A DNA stretch of 64,000 bases from Candidatus Gastranaerophilales bacterium (GCA_944326485.1 CALVED010000010.1:1-64000); one strand, 5' to 3'; numbered from the stretch's first letter, positions 593 to 6,174 are shown. Notes: a model not told the origin generated them from the letters alone. Made by a program: numbers and translations.

Positions 593-904
593 TTATTCAC
601 CGTAAACGGTAACTTTAACACCTCGCCAAAAGATGAAAACTGTTTTTTCCTGTATATCTATGTGGCTAATCTTTGTAATGCCTGCATTTTTTGCAGCTGT
701 GTCGATACTGGCGTCACCAACTTCAACAATGAATAATACATTTGTTGTGCTTGCTTCACCTTTTTTCAATTTAGATAAGTCTTGAACTTTTGTACCTGTT
801 GCCGTTACTGGATAAGTTGCATTAGTGTAAAATAACCCCATTGCGTTAGCTTGCGTACCTGTTAATGCAAATAATAATACTAATGTTGCTAAAATCTTTT
901 TCAT
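593..904 (-). CDS. TRL-like secreted protein (first of tandem pair)
   Basis: Encodes about 103 residues: a Sec signal peptide (MKKILATLVLLFALTGTQANA) and then a small domain with GLFYTNATYPVTATG, KKGEASTTN, GDASIDTAAKNAGI, TKI and a VYGE C-terminus. This pattern matches the TRL-like (tRNA-associated locus) family of small exported proteins of unknown function. I chose the ATG at 904 because AAGGAGA lies just upstream and the signal peptide starts there; an in-frame ATG at 928 would overlap the preceding gene. It is co-transcribed with the homologous gene 918-1280, with about 13 bases between them. The pair is divergent from the XRE gene that probably controls it. Confidence 0.8.
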   Translation of the reverse strand: MKKILATLVLLFALTGTQANAMGLFYTNATYPVTATGTKVQDLSKLKKGEASTTNVLFIVEVGDASIDTAAKNAGITKISHIDIQEKTVFIFWRGVKVTVYGE

Positions 905-917
905 ATTTAATTCTCCT

Positions 918-1280
918 TTATTCGCCATATACTAGCGTTTTTGTTTGTTTCACATAAATTGGAATAAAGCCCAAAGGGATATAAACCTTGTTGATTTTAG
1001 TATCAACATAGTGGATTTTAGTTATTCCACCATTACGAGCTGCAGCTTGCACCCCTCTGTCTCCTGTCTCGACAAGCCCTAGTACATTAATTGTGGTAGC
1101 TTCGCCAGATTTCAAGTTTTCAAGATTGGGCTTATTATTACCTATATTTCTTGCTACATCAACAGGGAAACTACTCCCTGTGTAAATCCCCCCTTTGTCA
1201 AAATAACTTGATACATCCACAGCAAATGCAGACTGAACACTTATTGTCACTAAAGCAAGTATAAGTAGAAATTTCTTCAT
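918..1280 (-). CDS. TRL-like secreted protein (second of tandem pair)
   Basis: Encodes 120 residues with a clear signal peptide ending SAFA (about residue 20), then the TRL-like core: GGIYTGSSFPVDVARN, LKSGEATTINVLGLVETGD, AAARNGGITKIHYVD and the terminal VYGE. It is a diverged paralogue of the downstream protein. An AAAGGAG Shine-Dalgarno precedes the ATG at 1280. Its promoter (1304-1332, minus strand) has the left arm of the inverted repeat shared with the XRE gene in its spacer, so it is probably repressed by that regulator. The biochemical role of the family is unknown; location is probably periplasm or outer membrane. Confidence 0.8.
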   Translation of the reverse strand: MKKFLLILALVTISVQSAFAVDVSSYFDKGGIYTGSSFPVDVARNIGNNKPNLENLKSGEATTINVLGLVETGDRGVQAAARNGGITKIHYVDTKINKVYIPLGFIPIYVKQTKTLVYGE

Positions 1281-1303: not shown

Positions 1304-1332
1304 ATCATAACATATTTAAGCATATATGCCAA
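1304..1332 (-). promoter_or_regulatory. Promoter of the TRL-like pair with operator in spacer
   Basis: On the minus strand, TTGGCA (1327-1332) and TATGAT (1304-1309) are 17 bases apart, about 25 bases before the start codon. The spacer coincides with the left arm of the 16-bp inverted repeat 1307-1322/1350-1365, so a protein bound there would block this promoter. Confidence 0.7.
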
Positions 1333-1365
1333 TATAACGGATTACATTGTGCTTAAATATGTTAT
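1307..1365. promoter_or_regulatory. 16-bp inverted repeat operator between TRL and XRE genes
   Basis: ATAACATATTTAAGCA (1307-1322) is perfectly inverted as TGCTTAAATATGTTAT (1350-1365), with 27 bases between. Each arm falls in the -35/-10 spacer of one of the two divergent promoters. A 14-base word, TTAAGCATATATGC (1316-1329), recurs with two mismatches at 1745-1758 upstream of hxsA. Confidence 0.7.
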
Positions 1366-1376: not shown

Positions 1377-1706
1377 ATGAAGATAAAAGATTTCTACAGA
1401 AATATTGGAAAACGCCTTAAAGAATTAAGATTACAAGCTAATATGTCACAGGAACAACTGGCTGAATATGTTGGAGTTGCCACAAAGACAATAAGTTATT
1501 GGGAGAATGCACATAATCCTGTAACCTTAAATAAGATTCCTCTTATTGCCCAGGCTTTAAATATTCCTGCATATAAACTATTTGTATTCTTTGACAGTGA
1601 AGAACAAGCGGCGGACAAAGACTATGTAAGTTTATTGCAGTCAAAAACAGGTGAAGAATTAGATGTACTCTTTAAACTAATAAAGGAATTGCAAAAGATT
1701 AAATAA
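1377..1706 (+). CDS. XRE-family helix-turn-helix regulator
   Basis: Encodes about 109 residues. Residues 5-60 form a Cro/CI-type HTH: RNIGKRLKELR, then MSQEQLAEYVGVATKTISYWENAHNPVTL, a canonical helix 2-turn-helix 3 with the usual WEN. The C-terminal 40 residues are a short helical tail, too small for a separate sensor domain. Upstream TTG and ATG codons are in frame, but the start at 1377 begins the fold and places the operator outside the gene. It lies between the divergent TRL pair and the hxs operon. Related sequence in all three promoters suggests that it represses itself and both flanking units; the inducing signal is unknown. Confidence 0.85.
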   Translation: MKIKDFYRNIGKRLKELRLQANMSQEQLAEYVGVATKTISYWENAHNPVTLNKIPLIAQALNIPAYKLFVFFDSEEQAADKDYVSLLQSKTGEELDVLFKLIKELQKIK

Positions 1707-1710
1707 TTTC

Positions 1711-1736
1711 ACATTATCTTTAATATAAGATAATGT
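1711..1736 (+). promoter_or_regulatory. Hairpin overlapping the hxs operator palindrome
   Basis: ACATTATCTT (1711-1720) pairs perfectly with AAGATAATGT (1727-1736) around a six-base loop, just after the XRE stop. It shares bases 1732-1736 with the next palindrome, so the two RNA hairpins cannot form together. It may be a weak terminator or part of an attenuator; there is no T run. Confidence 0.5.
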
Positions 1737-1775
1737 TTACAATATTAAGCATGTATACTTAATATTGTAAACATT
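1732..1775. promoter_or_regulatory. 18-bp perfect palindrome and candidate promoter upstream of hxsA
   Basis: The 18-base arm 1732-1749 is perfectly inverted at 1758-1775 around an eight-base centre. Inside it, TTTACA (1736-1741) and TAATAT (1760-1765) form a possible promoter with an 18-base spacer that carries TTAAGCATGTATAC, two mismatches from the word at 1316-1329 in the XRE/TRL operator. I infer an XRE binding site controlling hxs. Confidence 0.6.
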
Positions 1776-1840: not shown

Positions 1841-2113
1841 ATGAATAATATCAAAAGATTATTTAGTTGCTTTTCGGTTCTTACAATCTGTCTGCTTTCT
1901 AGTTTAGGAGTTCAGGCAAAAGCCGTAACGCCTGTTGCAAATATGATTCATAATCAGCAACAATCTATTACGACTGGGCAACAAGCATTTACACTTAGTC
2001 CTGCGATGATAACTACTGAAAATGAAAAGCTAGCAGGGCATTATTCTCACAGTTCCCACTATTCTCATGGTTCTCATGGCTCCCACCAGTCACATTATTC
2101 ATCAAGATTCTAA
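1841..2113 (+). CDS. hxsA: His-Xaa-Ser repeat precursor peptide HxsA
   Basis: Encodes 90 residues in three parts: a Sec-type signal peptide (hydrophobic core 11-22, A-x-A near 26-28), a Gln/Thr-rich linker (29-66), and a C-terminal run of seven uninterrupted His-Xaa-Ser triplets (residues 67-87: HYS, HSS, HYS, HGS, HGS, HQS, HYS) before SRF. This is the defining feature of HxsA, the predicted substrate of the His-Xaa-Ser radical SAM system, in which HxsB and HxsC are thought to modify the repeat. The finished product and its role are unknown to me. The signal peptide suggests export. hxsD starts three bases after the stop. Confidence 0.9.
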   Translation: MNNIKRLFSCFSVLTICLLSSLGVQAKAVTPVANMIHNQQQSITTGQQAFTLSPAMITTENEKLAGHYSHSSHYSHGSHGSHQSHYSSRF

Positions 2114-2116
2114 ATT

Positions 2117-2386
2117 ATGACAGAATATAAGATTTCTAAAGGTTTATATAATAAAGAAGCTATATTAAAAGTTGTTTATACACTTCAAAAGGAGTTTAAT
2201 ATCAGTATTACGGAAGATGAATTTAATTACATCTGTAATGTTGAGCCAAAGTGTGATATCGCATTTGATTTCAGTAGATTCAACAATAACATACAAGAAC
2301 AACAACTCAGGGAAACTCTTAGTTCTCAATTTGGAGAATTAAGAAATGCTATATATTCAAAGGCTTTTGAGCACTTTGAGAGATAA
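2117..2386 (+). CDS. hxsD: His-Xaa-Ser system protein HxsD
   Basis: Encodes 89 residues with no signal peptide or membrane segment. The N-terminus (YNKEAILKVVYTLQKEFNISIT) and a C-terminal helix with QLRE (residues 63-66) followed by RNAIYSKAFEHF match the small HxsD family, whose signature includes xLRE near the C-terminus. HxsD always accompanies HxsB and HxsC. By analogy with other RiPP systems it may help present the precursor, but no recognition domain is assigned here. The ATG follows the hxsA stop by three bases without a strong Shine-Dalgarno, so translational coupling is likely. Confidence 0.85.
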   Translation: MTEYKISKGLYNKEAILKVVYTLQKEFNISITEDEFNYICNVEPKCDIAFDFSRFNNNIQEQQLRETLSSQFGELRNAIYSKAFEHFER

Positions 2387-2397
2387 GTTGGGGTAAT

Positions 2398-3849
2398 ATG
2401 TCTTATATCTTATTACCTTTTCAATTTAAAACATTTGATAATAAATCCCTCTTGGTTAATCAAGCTGGGGAACATTTGTTCTTACCTTTAGAAGCTTTCA
2501 ATGCTTTTGTGAAGCAGGAATTACAAGTAGATGACAGGTATTATAATAAACTAAAAGCTAAACACTTTCTAACAAATGAAGAAGAAAAAGAAACTGTAAT
2601 AGAAATGCTAGCCACAAAATTGAGGACTCGAAAAGAGTTTATAATGAATTTTACCAGTCTGCATATGATTGTTATAACTCTTAGGTGTAATTGTTTGTGC
2701 AAATATTGTCACGCTTCCAGTGTAGATTTGGAGAGCAAAAATTATGATATGGATTGGGAAACTGCTAAGAAAACAATGGATACAATATTCCAAACGCCGT
2801 CTATGGATATAAAGATTGAATATCAAGGCGGAGAGCCTCTTTTGAATTGGGATATATTGAAACAGAGTATTTTATACGCTGAATTTCTGAACAAAATCGC
2901 AAAGAAGAAGTTAGGCTTCGTTATTTGCACTAATTTAATGGATATAACAGATGAACAAATAAAATTCTGTAAGAAACATAATGTAGAGATTTCTTCTTCC
3001 CTAGACGGTACTAAAGATATTCATGACTGTAATAGAGTATCTCGGATATATGATAGCTCATATGAAGCCTTTATAAATAACTCAACAAGAGTAAGAAAAG
3101 TTCTAGGGGATGACGGCTGTTCTCCATTATTAACAATTACAAACAAGAATATTAACAGATTAGACGAAGTAATAGATGAATATGCAAAACAAGGCTATCA
3201 GTCAATATTTTTAAGGGCTTTAAATCCTTATGGAAATGCTATAAAGAATAAAGATTCGCTTGGTTATTCAGTTGAAGAATATGTAAATGCTTATAAAGAC
3301 GCTTTAAGTTACATTATTGGGTTAAACCGCAAGGGAATTTGTTTTACTGAATGCTTTACAGCTTTATTCTTAAGTCGGATTCTTACACCGTTTTCCACTG
3401 GTTTTGTAGATTTACAATCTCCTTCGGGGGCTGGTATATCTGGAACAATTTATAATTATGACGGTAAAGTATATCCTGCTGATGAAGGTAGAATGCTTGC
3501 AAGAATGGGCGATGATTTTTTCTGTATGGGAACAGTAAATAATACTTATGATGAGTTATTTAATGGCAAAGTTATAAGAGATATTGTATTTAATTCTTGC
3601 GTGGAAAATATGCCTGTATGCTCGGAGTGTGTATATCAGCAATACTGCGGTGCGGATGTTATAAGAAATTACTTAGAAACAAAAGATTTAATGGGGTACA
3701 GGCTAAATAATGACTTTTGCAAAAAGAATAAGTTAATATTAGACTACATCTTTGAACTGCTATCTAAAGACGATGAACAAATGTTGGATATATTTTGGGC
3801 ATGGATAACTCGCAGACCTTATAAGGCGGTGCAACTTGAACAGAATTAA
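2398..3849 (+). CDS. hxsB: His-Xaa-Ser system radical SAM/SPASM maturase HxsB
   Basis: Encodes 483 residues. After an N-terminal region of about 90 residues comes the radical SAM barrel with the CX3CX2C cluster motif (Cys97, Cys101, Cys104 in RCNCLCKYCHAS) and the SAM-binding GGEP in YQGGEPLLNW. A C-terminal Cys-rich SPASM-type region follows (CVENMPVCSECVYQQYCG and a later FCKK), expected to hold auxiliary Fe-S clusters. This organisation, next to HxsA, HxsD and HxsC, identifies HxsB, a predicted cytoplasmic maturase of the His-Xaa-Ser peptide. GGGG lies shortly before the ATG. The end overlaps hxsC by 14 bases. Confidence 0.92.
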   Translation: MSYILLPFQFKTFDNKSLLVNQAGEHLFLPLEAFNAFVKQELQVDDRYYNKLKAKHFLTNEEEKETVIEMLATKLRTRKEFIMNFTSLHMIVITLRCNCLCKYCHASSVDLESKNYDMDWETAKKTMDTIFQTPSMDIKIEYQGGEPLLNWDILKQSILYAEFLNKIAKKKLGFVICTNLMDITDEQIKFCKKHNVEISSSLDGTKDIHDCNRVSRIYDSSYEAFINNSTRVRKVLGDDGCSPLLTITNKNINRLDEVIDEYAKQGYQSIFLRALNPYGNAIKNKDSLGYSVEEYVNAYKDALSYIIGLNRKGICFTECFTALFLSRILTPFSTGFVDLQSPSGAGISGTIYNYDGKVYPADEGRMLARMGDDFFCMGTVNNTYDELFNGKVIRDIVFNSCVENMPVCSECVYQQYCGADVIRNYLETKDLMGYRLNNDFCKKNKLILDYIFELLSKDDEQMLDIFWAWITRRPYKAVQLEQN

Positions 3850-4960
3850 AGGAAATATAACAAACTACACTAATTTTATAATTGGCAGATTCGACAAAGA
3901 TAATAATATATGCACAAAAGATAGAATAGTTTATTGCACAAAGAAGCCTTTAATTACGGTTGGGATTCAAGGGTATATAGTACCTAAAGGATGTGCATTT
4001 AAAACGAATAAACCTCTATTAGAAATAGAGGGGGATGTGCCTTTTAAGAATGGGGATATTATAAGTATATCAGCAGAAGGCATAGTTTCCCTTATATGGG
4101 ATAATCAATCTCCGCATAATGCTTTATATGTAACAGATATTTGTAATTCAAAGTGTATCATGTGCCCTCAAATTGAGTGTGCACAACCTAGATATAATGA
4201 ATGTTTGAAGATTTTAGACCATGTTAAACTTGACTCTAATGCCAGCATTGGAATAACTGGTGGAGAACCTACATTAAATATTGATAAATTGGTTGAAATC
4301 TTAAGCAAGATTGCAAAGAAATCACCAAAACAACAAGTCCACATATTAACGAATGGTAGATTGTTTAAAAATCTTGATATAGTAAAGAAACTTGCAAGTG
4401 TTAAAAATTTAAGGGTATCTGTTGGCATTCCTTTATATTCTGATATAGCAGAAGAACATGATTTTATAGTAGGAGTTAAAGGTGCATTTAATGAAACTCT
4501 TCAAGGCTTATACAATTTAGGTCGTATGGGCATAAATATAGAGATTAGAACAGTAATTTTAAAACAGAATTATACTAAATTAAAAGACTTAGCAGAATAT
4601 ATCTATCGGAACTTACCATTTGTTTCTAAAGTTGCATTAATGGGATTGGAATATCACGGAAATGCAGAAACTAATTATAATTTAATAGCAATAGACCCCC
4701 TAGATTATAAACACGAACTCTTTGAAGCTGTTAGACAGTATGTAAGATATAACTTGCTTGTTGATGTTTATAATACGCCTTTATGCCTTGTCGATAGTCG
4801 AATTGAGGAGTTTTGCAGAGATAGTATATCAACTTGGAAGAAATCATATACAGAGGCTTGTAAAAGTTGCATAAAGAAAGAAATTTGTAGTGGAGTATTT
4901 GAAACTTCATTCAAACATAGTGAAAATATTCATCCTATAAAGACCATACAAAACCAGTAA
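3836..4960 (+). CDS. hxsC: His-Xaa-Ser system radical SAM maturase HxsC
   Basis: Encodes 374 residues from a TTG start; AAGGCGG sits about six bases upstream inside hxsB. An N-terminal beta-rich segment of about 90 residues precedes the radical SAM motif CX3CX2C (Cys103, Cys107, Cys110 in DICNSKCIMC) and TGGEPTLN. The C-terminus has another Cys group (ACKSCIKKEICSGVF) likely to bind an auxiliary cluster. The second radical SAM enzyme of the Hxs system always occurs with HxsB. The overlapping start suggests translational coupling and a fixed HxsB:HxsC ratio. The modification chemistry cannot be read from sequence. Confidence 0.92.
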   Translation: MNRIKGNITNYTNFIIGRFDKDNNICTKDRIVYCTKKPLITVGIQGYIVPKGCAFKTNKPLLEIEGDVPFKNGDIISISAEGIVSLIWDNQSPHNALYVTDICNSKCIMCPQIECAQPRYNECLKILDHVKLDSNASIGITGGEPTLNIDKLVEILSKIAKKSPKQQVHILTNGRLFKNLDIVKKLASVKNLRVSVGIPLYSDIAEEHDFIVGVKGAFNETLQGLYNLGRMGINIEIRTVILKQNYTKLKDLAEYIYRNLPFVSKVALMGLEYHGNAETNYNLIAIDPLDYKHELFEAVRQYVRYNLLVDVYNTPLCLVDSRIEEFCRDSISTWKKSYTEACKSCIKKEICSGVFETSFKHSENIHPIKTIQNQ

Positions 4961-5345: not shown

Positions 5346-5927
5346 ATGAAAAAAACATCTTTATTATTTGCTTCAATTATTATGTTATTTATAATTTCAA
5401 TAAATACAGCTGATGCACAAGTATTTAAAGGACGTTCATTAAGTGAAATATCAACAAAAAACCCTCAAGATACTATAGAAGTAAAATCATTAAAAAAACT
5501 AAACTTAGGTAATGGAACAATTATAGAAAAAAATTCAATTATAAAAGGGAAAATGACTGACGTTGTTTCTCCAGAAAAATTTCATAAAAATGCAAGTTTT
5601 ACATTTATTCCAACAGAATATACAGATAGTAACGGAATAAAACATTTAATTTCTAAAGAAATTAAAGCAACTTACAGACAAAAATTAAAACCTGACTTTG
5701 AACATTCTGAAATTGGGGTTGGAATGACAACTGACGGTAGTGATCCATCTAATTCAATGTATGTATTTTCTCCTTCCTATATTTCTAATACAAAGAAAAT
5801 TGTTAGAGGAGAAGGAAAAGAAGTATGGGATGAATACAAAAATAGAACAACGCCTTGGGGAAAAGGAGAACATATTAATATTAAACAAAACGAAATTATC
5901 TACTTTAACTTCCCTGATGTTGAGTAA
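5346..5927 (+). CDS. Secreted protein of unknown function
   Basis: Encodes 193 residues with a clear signal peptide (MKKTSLLFASIIMLFIISINTADA) followed by a soluble, Lys-rich, beta-type domain without cysteines. It contains LNLGNGTIIEKNSIIKGKMTDVV, which resembles a short barrel strand pair, and FTFIPTEYTD. I do not recognise a family. The start at 5346 is preferred to an in-frame ATG at 5319 because the ribosome binding site lies between them. The gene has its own promoter and is followed by a dispersed repeat. Likely periplasmic or surface-associated. Confidence 0.75.
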   Translation: MKKTSLLFASIIMLFIISINTADAQVFKGRSLSEISTKNPQDTIEVKSLKKLNLGNGTIIEKNSIIKGKMTDVVSPEKFHKNASFTFIPTEYTDSNGIKHLISKEIKATYRQKLKPDFEHSEIGVGMTTDGSDPSNSMYVFSPSYISNTKKIVRGEGKEVWDEYKNRTTPWGKGEHINIKQNEIIYFNFPDVE

Positions 5928-6096: not shown

Positions 6097-6174
6097 AATA
6101 AGAAACAATATTTTTTAACGGTTTAATTGTTTTAGTTATAAGCTAATGATATAATTTTGAAAAGTGATAATTTT

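What the first reader, a model, noticed from the sequence alone, without database searches (positions are those of the whole stretch)
1841..4960. Complete His-Xaa-Ser (hxsADBC) peptide-modification operon
A signal-peptide-bearing precursor with seven perfect His-Xaa-Ser triplets (residues 67-87) is followed by HxsD, HxsB and HxsC. The two radical SAM proteins both have CX3CX2C. The families match the predicted, as far as I know chemically unassigned, His-Xaa-Ser system. A Sec signal on the precursor implies an exported product. The presence of this system in a cyanobacteria-related anaerobe is itself worth recording.
Basis: partly seen in the sequence, partly recalled or inferred. Interest (0 to 1): 0.8.

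Follow-up and report, generated by a model that had tools for sequence, protein, structure and literature searches.

The report
Mobile His-Xaa-Ser peptide-modification operon
A complete four-gene cassette (hxsA-D-B-C) of the known but chemically unsolved His-Xaa-Ser type, which makes, probably cross-links and exports a small histidine-serine peptide, has been acquired by a cyanobacteria-related bacterium as a mobile accessory locus.

Summary
hxsA (1841-2113, seven perfect HxS triplets, signal peptide), hxsD, hxsB and hxsC lie in order. HxsD, HxsB and HxsC pass their NCBIfam equivalog cut-offs; HxsA passes none (a divergent short HxsA). Known kind of system (Haft and Basu 2011); no chemistry for HxsB/HxsC was found in the open papers searched. 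Added here from about 100 related loci: (1) the H-x-S triad is the real unit: 708 of 722 core histidines have Ser at +2, while arrays are rarely preceded by Ser or followed by His. That is the i/i+2 geometry of three-residue cyclophanes (triceptides), so a His-Ser cross-link is my leading chemical guess. (2) The HxsB model has an N-terminal RRE-like domain and a CteB/anSME-like core lacking both AuxI cysteines; HxsC has its own four-Cys auxiliary site; HxsD is a small alpha/beta protein, not RRE-like. (3) Long HxsA relatives carry peptidoglycan-binding, PEGA or cadherin-like tails, supporting export. (4) The cassette is mobile: 3 of 41 congeners have it, their flanks differ, a sharp synteny break lies beside it, and hxsB occurs on plasmids and phages. 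New member of a known kind; interest moderate.

The parts
1307..1365 (.). Perfect 16-bp inverted repeat (ATAACATATTTAAGCA...TGCTTAAATATGTTAT) upstream of the regulator gene; candidate operator
   Evidence: shares TTAAGCA with the palindrome at 1732-1775. Regulatory role inferred.
1377..1706 (+). Cro/CI-type HTH regulator gene (109 aa) just upstream of hxsA
   Evidence: Pfam HTH_3 E=3.2e-14. Not conserved at the operon in two congeners; link to hxs is inferred.
1732..1775 (.). 44-bp near-perfect palindrome 66 bp upstream of hxsA; candidate operator or terminator
   Evidence: 21-nt arms, 95% complementary, 2 nt apart; inner 26 bp unique in the window, none in 100 shuffles
1841..2113 (+). hxsA, precursor peptide, 90 aa
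   Evidence: AAGGAG about 9 nt upstream of the ATG (sequence)
1841..1918 (+). Predicted Sec signal peptide, residues 1-26 (cleavage after VQA; AKA possible)
   Evidence: hydrophobic stretch KD 2.48 with net positive N-region; predicted only
1985..2008 (+). Hydrophobic leader motif AFTLSPAM (residues 49-56), counterpart of FILYNGSA / LYLEHA in relatives
   Evidence: the motif sampler picked another segment in this protein, so this assignment is by eye
2039..2101 (+). Core: seven H-x-S triads (residues 67-87), then SRF
2117..2386 (+). hxsD, 89 aa, predicted beta-alpha-beta-beta-alpha protein
   Evidence: TIGR03976 60.2 bits, cut-off 50; AlphaFold2 pLDDT 91
2398..3849 (+). hxsB, radical SAM/SPASM-type maturase, 483 aa
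   Evidence: TIGR03978 567.9 bits, cut-off 370; AlphaFold2 pLDDT 94
2419..2631 (+). RRE-like N-terminal domain of HxsB (residues 8-78; three strands then three helices)
   Evidence: CteB aligned from residue 6
3836..4960 (+). hxsC, radical SAM maturase, 374 aa, TTG start, with invariant C317/C342/C345/C351 auxiliary site
   Evidence: TIGR03977 339.9 bits, cut-off 267.9
6136..6168 (.). Synteny break: to the right 95% identical to congeners G232 and G266, to the left (with hxs) absent there

Best explanation
This is a complete, horizontally acquired Hxs cassette. Shown: gene content, order, family membership of HxsD/B/C, repeat unit, cysteine sites, mobility; predicted: signal peptide, folds. 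Inferred, in order: (1) HxsA is made as a leader-core peptide; a short hydrophobic leader motif some 9-25 residues before the core docks on the N-terminal RRE-like domain of HxsB, HxsD helping as a scaffold. (2) HxsB and HxsC, two radical SAM enzymes each with one auxiliary Fe-S site, oxidise each H-x-S triad; the most likely reaction is a bond between the imidazole of His(i) and the beta carbon of Ser(i+2), i.e. a chain of three-residue cyclophanes as in triceptides. (3) The modified peptide leaves by the Sec route, is cut after the signal peptide, and acts in the periplasm or at the wall as a stiff histidine-rich, perhaps metal-binding, peptide. Stated separately: functional Hxs system with RRE-guided double radical SAM maturation and export 0.8; His-Ser i/i+2 cross-link as the product 0.35; metal binding as the role 0.3.
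For: HMM cut-offs for HxsD/B/C. 99 of 106 hxsB loci carry an HxS peptide beside them, order ADBC in 46 and DBCA in 36. 708/722 core His have Ser at +2; first His preceded by Ser in 7/99; His directly after the run-final Ser in 1/114: the array consists of whole H-x-S units. Triceptide enzymes link aromatic residue i to C-beta of i+2, including His(C2)-C-beta(Ala) by HaaB, His-Arg by YhhB and Phe-Ser by MscB (review PMC11002830). HxsB model: RRE topology E8-13 E16-21 E26-30 H31-38 H47-54 H61-78 and fold match to CteB over residues 6-459, Z 34.7. Invariant cysteine sets. Extracytoplasmic fusions PG_binding_1, PEGA, Big_9/cadherin-like in relatives' HxsA.
Against: No product has been measured. 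HxsB is nearer by sequence to ranthipeptide/SCIFF maturases (PapB model 115.6 bits) than to the triceptide YhhB model (59.5, cut-off 445), and its fold ranks anSME, a Ser/Cys oxidase, first. Why two radical SAM enzymes are needed is unexplained by a single cross-link type. The leader motif in this HxsA is weak. Runs were found with an H.S pattern, so array ends are partly set by the search. No leader-enzyme complex was modelled.
Confidence: 0.45

Rival explanations
1. Side-chain oxidation without cross-link: HxsB acts like an anaerobic sulfatase-maturating enzyme and oxidises the Ser of each H-x-S to formylglycine (or another aldehyde/acid), with HxsC doing a second step.
For: anSME is the top fold match of the HxsB model (Z 36) and second by sequence after CteB in the PDB; Ser is invariant at +2.
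Against: In this family nearly all HxsB lack the two AuxI cysteines (positions 343 and 361) that anSME-type SPASM proteins use (own knowledge); it does not explain why His is as strictly conserved as Ser.
Confidence: 0.2
2. The histidines themselves are changed (beta-hydroxylation, epimerisation or backbone link) and Ser only serves recognition or solubility.
For: Radical SAM epimerases and His-modifying enzymes exist; the HxsB fold also overlaps EpeE (Z about 18).
Against: Ser at +2 is as invariant as His while the middle residue varies freely among 17 residues.
Confidence: 0.15
3. A bacteriocin-like RiPP: the exported HxS peptide inhibits competitors, and the operon travels as a fitness island.
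For: Mobile, sporadic distribution, plasmid and phage carriage.
Against: No dedicated exporter, immunity gene or leader protease recurs in the clustering of flanking ORFs; many HxsA carry wall-binding or other extracytoplasmic domains, which fits a structural or binding role better.
Confidence: 0.1
4. Decayed cargo of a mobile island with no activity in this host.
For: Accessory, near a contig end, absent from most congeners.
Against: All four frames intact, all catalytic and cluster cysteines kept, and two congeners keep the cassette at about 68-69% DNA identity with 71-73% protein identity in HxsB.
Confidence: 0.05

Closest known systems
His-Xaa-Ser (Hxs) system: TIGR03976 HxsD, TIGR03977 HxsC, TIGR03978 HxsB, HxsA families (Haft and Basu 2011, as cited in PMC9062424)
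   Same: Same four genes, same order as the commonest ADBC layout (46 loci), HxsD/B/C above curated cut-offs, HxS-repeat precursor with signal peptide.
   Different: Its HxsA is short and scores below every curated HxsA model, as do those of its congeners.
SCIFF maturase CteB and ranthipeptide maturase PapB
   Same: RRE-like N-domain plus radical SAM plus SPASM-like C-domain (CteB); CteB is the best PDB sequence hit of the HxsB profile (5wgg, 1.6e-34).
   Different: Substrate has no cysteines in the core, so no thioether is possible; HxsB lacks the AuxI cysteines.
Triceptides (three-residue cyclophane RiPPs; XncB, OscB, MscB, YxdB, HaaB, YhhB)
   Same: Aromatic (here His) at i and a modifiable residue at i+2; radical SAM enzyme with auxiliary cluster.
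   Different: Two radical SAM enzymes and HxsD instead of one enzyme; weak HMM similarity (YhhB 59.5 bits, cut-off 445); product unknown.
Bicyclostreptin (HghB/HghC, two radical SAM enzymes plus RRE protein HghD)
   Same: Two radical SAM enzymes acting on a peptide with His and Ser, with a small partner protein.
   Different: There one link is Ser(i)-O to His(i+3) (PMC11002830); in a strict HxS repeat no His lies at Ser+3, so that geometry is not available.

Membership tests
His-Xaa-Ser (Hxs) system | HxsB radical SAM equivalog (TIGR03978) | tested here: met
   567.9 bits, cut-off 370
His-Xaa-Ser (Hxs) system | HxsC radical SAM equivalog (TIGR03977) | tested here: met
   339.9 bits, cut-off 267.9
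His-Xaa-Ser (Hxs) system | HxsD (TIGR03976) | tested here: met
   60.2 bits, cut-off 50
His-Xaa-Ser (Hxs) system | Adjacent small protein with tandem H-x-S repeats | tested here: met
   Seven triplets, residues 67-87; not reached in 200,000 shuffles
HxsA / HxsA2 / HxsA3 / HxsA4 curated subfamilies | Curated score cut-off of any HxsA model | tested here: not met
   37.2 of 121.65; 36.7 of 48; 16.2 of 65; 30.9 of 55. It is HxsA-like but belongs to none of the named subfamilies.
His-Xaa-Ser (Hxs) system | Modified peptide product | not testable with these tools
   Needs expression and mass spectrometry
RiPP recognition element (in HxsB) | Three-stranded sheet followed by three helices | tested here: met
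   AlphaFold2 E8-13 E16-21 E26-30 H31-38 H47-54 H61-78; CteB aligned from residue 6
RiPP recognition element (in HxsB) | Binds the leader peptide | not testable with these tools
   Needs a binding assay
RiPP recognition element (HxsD) | Three-stranded sheet followed by three helices | tested here: not met
   Model is beta-alpha-beta-beta-alpha, pLDDT 91. Fold searches gave only weak, mostly ferredoxin-like or KH-like matches, Z under 7, which by themselves decide nothing.
Triceptide maturases (3-CyFE) | Substrate motif aromatic-x-x with modifiable third residue | tested here: met
   H-x-S at 708 of 722 core His
Triceptide maturases (3-CyFE) | Curated model of a characterised 3-CyFE (YhhB, NF041707) | tested here: not met
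   59.5 bits, cut-off 445. Works-like claim only.
Triceptide maturases (3-CyFE) | C-C cyclophane between residues i and i+2 | not testable with these tools
   Needs MS/MS and NMR

The most novel reading that the evidence does not exclude
HxsB and HxsC together turn the H-x-S array into a continuous ladder of His-Ser three-residue rings, a stiff exported imidazole rod (a poly-triceptide) that in relatives is anchored to the cell wall and binds metal; this would be a RiPP class made of many identical cross-linked units carried on a wall protein, with up to 46 repeats in a sister lineage.
Probability: 0.2. Interest if true: 0.75.

Novelty: new member of a known kind. Interest (0 to 1): 0.42.

Why it matters
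The Hxs system is one of the widespread radical SAM peptide systems whose product is, in the open literature I could search, still unassigned. The comparison made here gives a concrete, cheap test (-2 Da per triad, dependent on both His and Ser of that triad), says where the leader is probably held (HxsB residues 1-80), suggests that HxsB has lost one auxiliary cluster, and shows that the product is probably displayed outside the cell. The short window version, with only 90 residues and a core without Cys, Trp or Thr, is a handy substrate for solving the chemistry. As an occurrence in this organism it is ordinary: a mobile cassette found across many bacterial phyla.

Tried and rejected
Tried: (a) literature on Hxs chemistry with several term sets: only PMC9062424 discusses the system in a RiPP context, and only as a prediction; Haft and Basu 2011 is not held, and two RRE papers do not mention Hxs. 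(b) HxsD as the RRE: rejected on predicted topology; PDB profile and fold searches give nothing above noise, which does not prove a new fold. (c) Recurrent neighbour genes that would reveal the function: apart from hxs genes mainly HTH regulators recur (8 loci, not in a conserved position); a thermonuclease seen beside two operons did not form a recurrent cluster. (d) Bicyclostreptin-type Ser(i)-His(i+3) link: excluded by repeat geometry. (e) Secreted protein at 5346-5924 as part of the system: no Pfam match and no similarity to a secreted protein beside the operon in a same-class genome. (f) The motif sampler finds a leader motif better than shuffled leaders (7.9 vs 5.8 bits) but in two registers, one being the tail just before the core, so the exact recognition motif is not settled.

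Full report
WHAT IS THERE. Four co-directional genes lie at 1841-4960: hxsA (90 aa), hxsD (89 aa, 3 nt after hxsA), hxsB (483 aa) and hxsC (374 aa, TTG start inside the end of hxsB, with AAGGCGG just upstream). NCBIfam places HxsD, HxsB and HxsC above their equivalog cut-offs (60.2/50, 567.9/370, 339.9/267.9), and no competing family scores near them; HxsA matches the HxsA models only through its repeat and stays below every cut-off. The two congeners' precursors are also below cut-off, as are those of several other lineages, so short HxsA are more diverse than the curated models. Seven perfect triplets are far from chance.

THE PRECURSOR FAMILY. I collected 106 loci around hxsB from genomes, plasmids, phages and viral contigs (a few are duplicates of one another). 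99 carry a peptide with at least three tandem HxS, mostly in the layouts ADBC (46) or DBCA (36). Typical precursors have a positively charged start and a hydrophobic stretch (79 of 99 pass both simple thresholds), a leader of about 70 residues in which a short hydrophobic motif such as PLYLEHA or FSFILKR stands some 9-25 residues before the core, and mostly 5-8 uninterrupted triads. The middle residue varies (S, R, Y, A, G and twelve others), the last triad is most often HYS, and the tail is often SRY/SRF/GY.

THE UNIT IS H-x-S. Among 722 histidines in the core regions 708 have Ser at +2. The first His of the array is preceded by Ser in 7 of 99 precursors, which is about the background of the leaders (10%), and the last Ser of a run is followed directly by His in 1 of 114. 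So neither Ser-His neighbours nor Ser-to-next-His pairs are needed; the complete unit runs from His to the Ser two residues later. Because runs were found with an H.S pattern, their starting on His and ending on Ser is by construction, but the residues before and after are not. This is the i/i+2 spacing of three-residue cyclophanes. A review in the library lists radical SAM enzymes joining His C2 to C-beta of residue i+2 (HaaB, YhhB) and Phe to C-beta of Ser (MscB) (PMC11002830). The bicyclostreptin geometry, Ser(i)-O to His(i+3), cannot occur in a strict HxS repeat. Hence a His-Ser cross-link is my leading guess, about one in three; it is not shown.

THE ENZYMES. AlphaFold2 gives HxsB at pLDDT 94. 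Residues 8-78 have the order strand-strand-strand-helix-helix-helix of a RiPP recognition element, and the structural alignment with the SCIFF maturase CteB runs from residue 6 to 459 (Z 34.7, 409 residues); with anSME it covers the catalytic and SPASM part (Z 36). HxsB has the radical SAM cysteines 97/101/104 and the SPASM-type set 408/411/417/441, but the two positions that would hold the AuxI cysteines (343 and 361; assignment from the SPASM pattern, own knowledge) are Ser/Ala/Thr in nearly all HxsB; in the main alignment only L108 has both, and L013 and L015 do too (sequence SPCGA...YTCDE). These three form one supported branch (SH-aLRT 100) with HxsA3/HxsA4-type precursors. So the common HxsB has probably lost one auxiliary cluster. 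HxsC has cysteines 103/107/110 and an invariant 317/342/345/351 set. HxsD is predicted with confidence as beta-alpha-beta-beta-alpha, with only weak matches to ferredoxin-like folds; it is not RRE-like, and I take it as a scaffold or second leader binder (inference).

WHERE THE PRODUCT ACTS. The signal peptide predicts Sec export. Independently, longer HxsA from other bacteria carry after the HxS segment peptidoglycan-binding domains (PF01471: L020, L021, L056, L099), a PEGA domain (L090) or cadherin-like/Ig domains (L048). All are extracytoplasmic types, so the HxS segment is most likely displayed outside in the whole family. Histidine-containing cross-linked peptides can bind copper (noursin, PMC10206099); a metal role here is plausible but untested.

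MOBILITY. hxsB is in 3 of 41 genomes of the genus and 6 of 289 sampled from the class. Between the window and its two congeners only the operon aligns (68-69% DNA identity), not the flanks. At 6136-6168 the window becomes 95% identical to congeners G266 and G232, whereas everything to the left, including the operon, is missing at that site there. In the HxsB tree the three congeners form one clade that joins Negativicutes copies with moderate support (82 and 89), away from the other copies of the same class and from a named Gastranaerophilales MAG, so several separate acquisitions are likely. hxsB relatives are also on 409 plasmid records, 316 of them Klebsiella, on two phage records, and in 13 viral contigs.

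REGULATION. A Cro/CI-type regulator gene lies upstream. Between it and hxsA is a 44-bp near-perfect palindrome (1732-1775), and upstream of the regulator a perfect 16-bp inverted repeat with the same TTAAGCA element. This looks like an operator pair, but the arrangement is not conserved in the congeners.

ORGANISM.

VERDICT. Observation and family assignment confirmed. It is a new member of a known kind, with a divergent precursor, in a mobile setting. The value lies in what the comparison says about the unsolved chemistry, not in the occurrence itself.

Noticed in passing
G000:C1, about 202000-231000 (outside the window): About 14 radical SAM hits to the HxsC model cluster within 30 kb of the same genome, suggesting a large radical SAM gene array.
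   Followed up: no
L015:4137-4733 (genome G287, same order): An HxsA4-type precursor with 46 HxS triads, beside hxsD and hxsB; no hxsC above cut-off was found in that genome.
   Followed up: partly
window 1732-1775 and 1307-1365: Long palindrome and inverted repeat around the HTH regulator gene, sharing TTAAGCA.
   Followed up: partly
window 593-928 and 918-1280, - strand: Tandem secreted TRL-family proteins (PF13146), weakly similar to the Leptospira adhesin Lsa14 model, next to the operon in the accessory segment.
   Followed up: no
window 6136-6168: Sharp synteny break against congeners with 95% identity to the right; the left part of the island runs to the contig end.
   Followed up: partly
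plasmids collection: HxsB relatives on 316 Klebsiella plasmid records; 325 of the 409 plasmid records with a match are typed conjugative.
   Followed up: no
L039, L027, L042, L030: hxs operons in MAGs labelled Lokiarchaeota, Nanosynbacter, Patescibacteria and Anoxychlamydiales; binning errors are possible on these short contigs.
   Followed up: no
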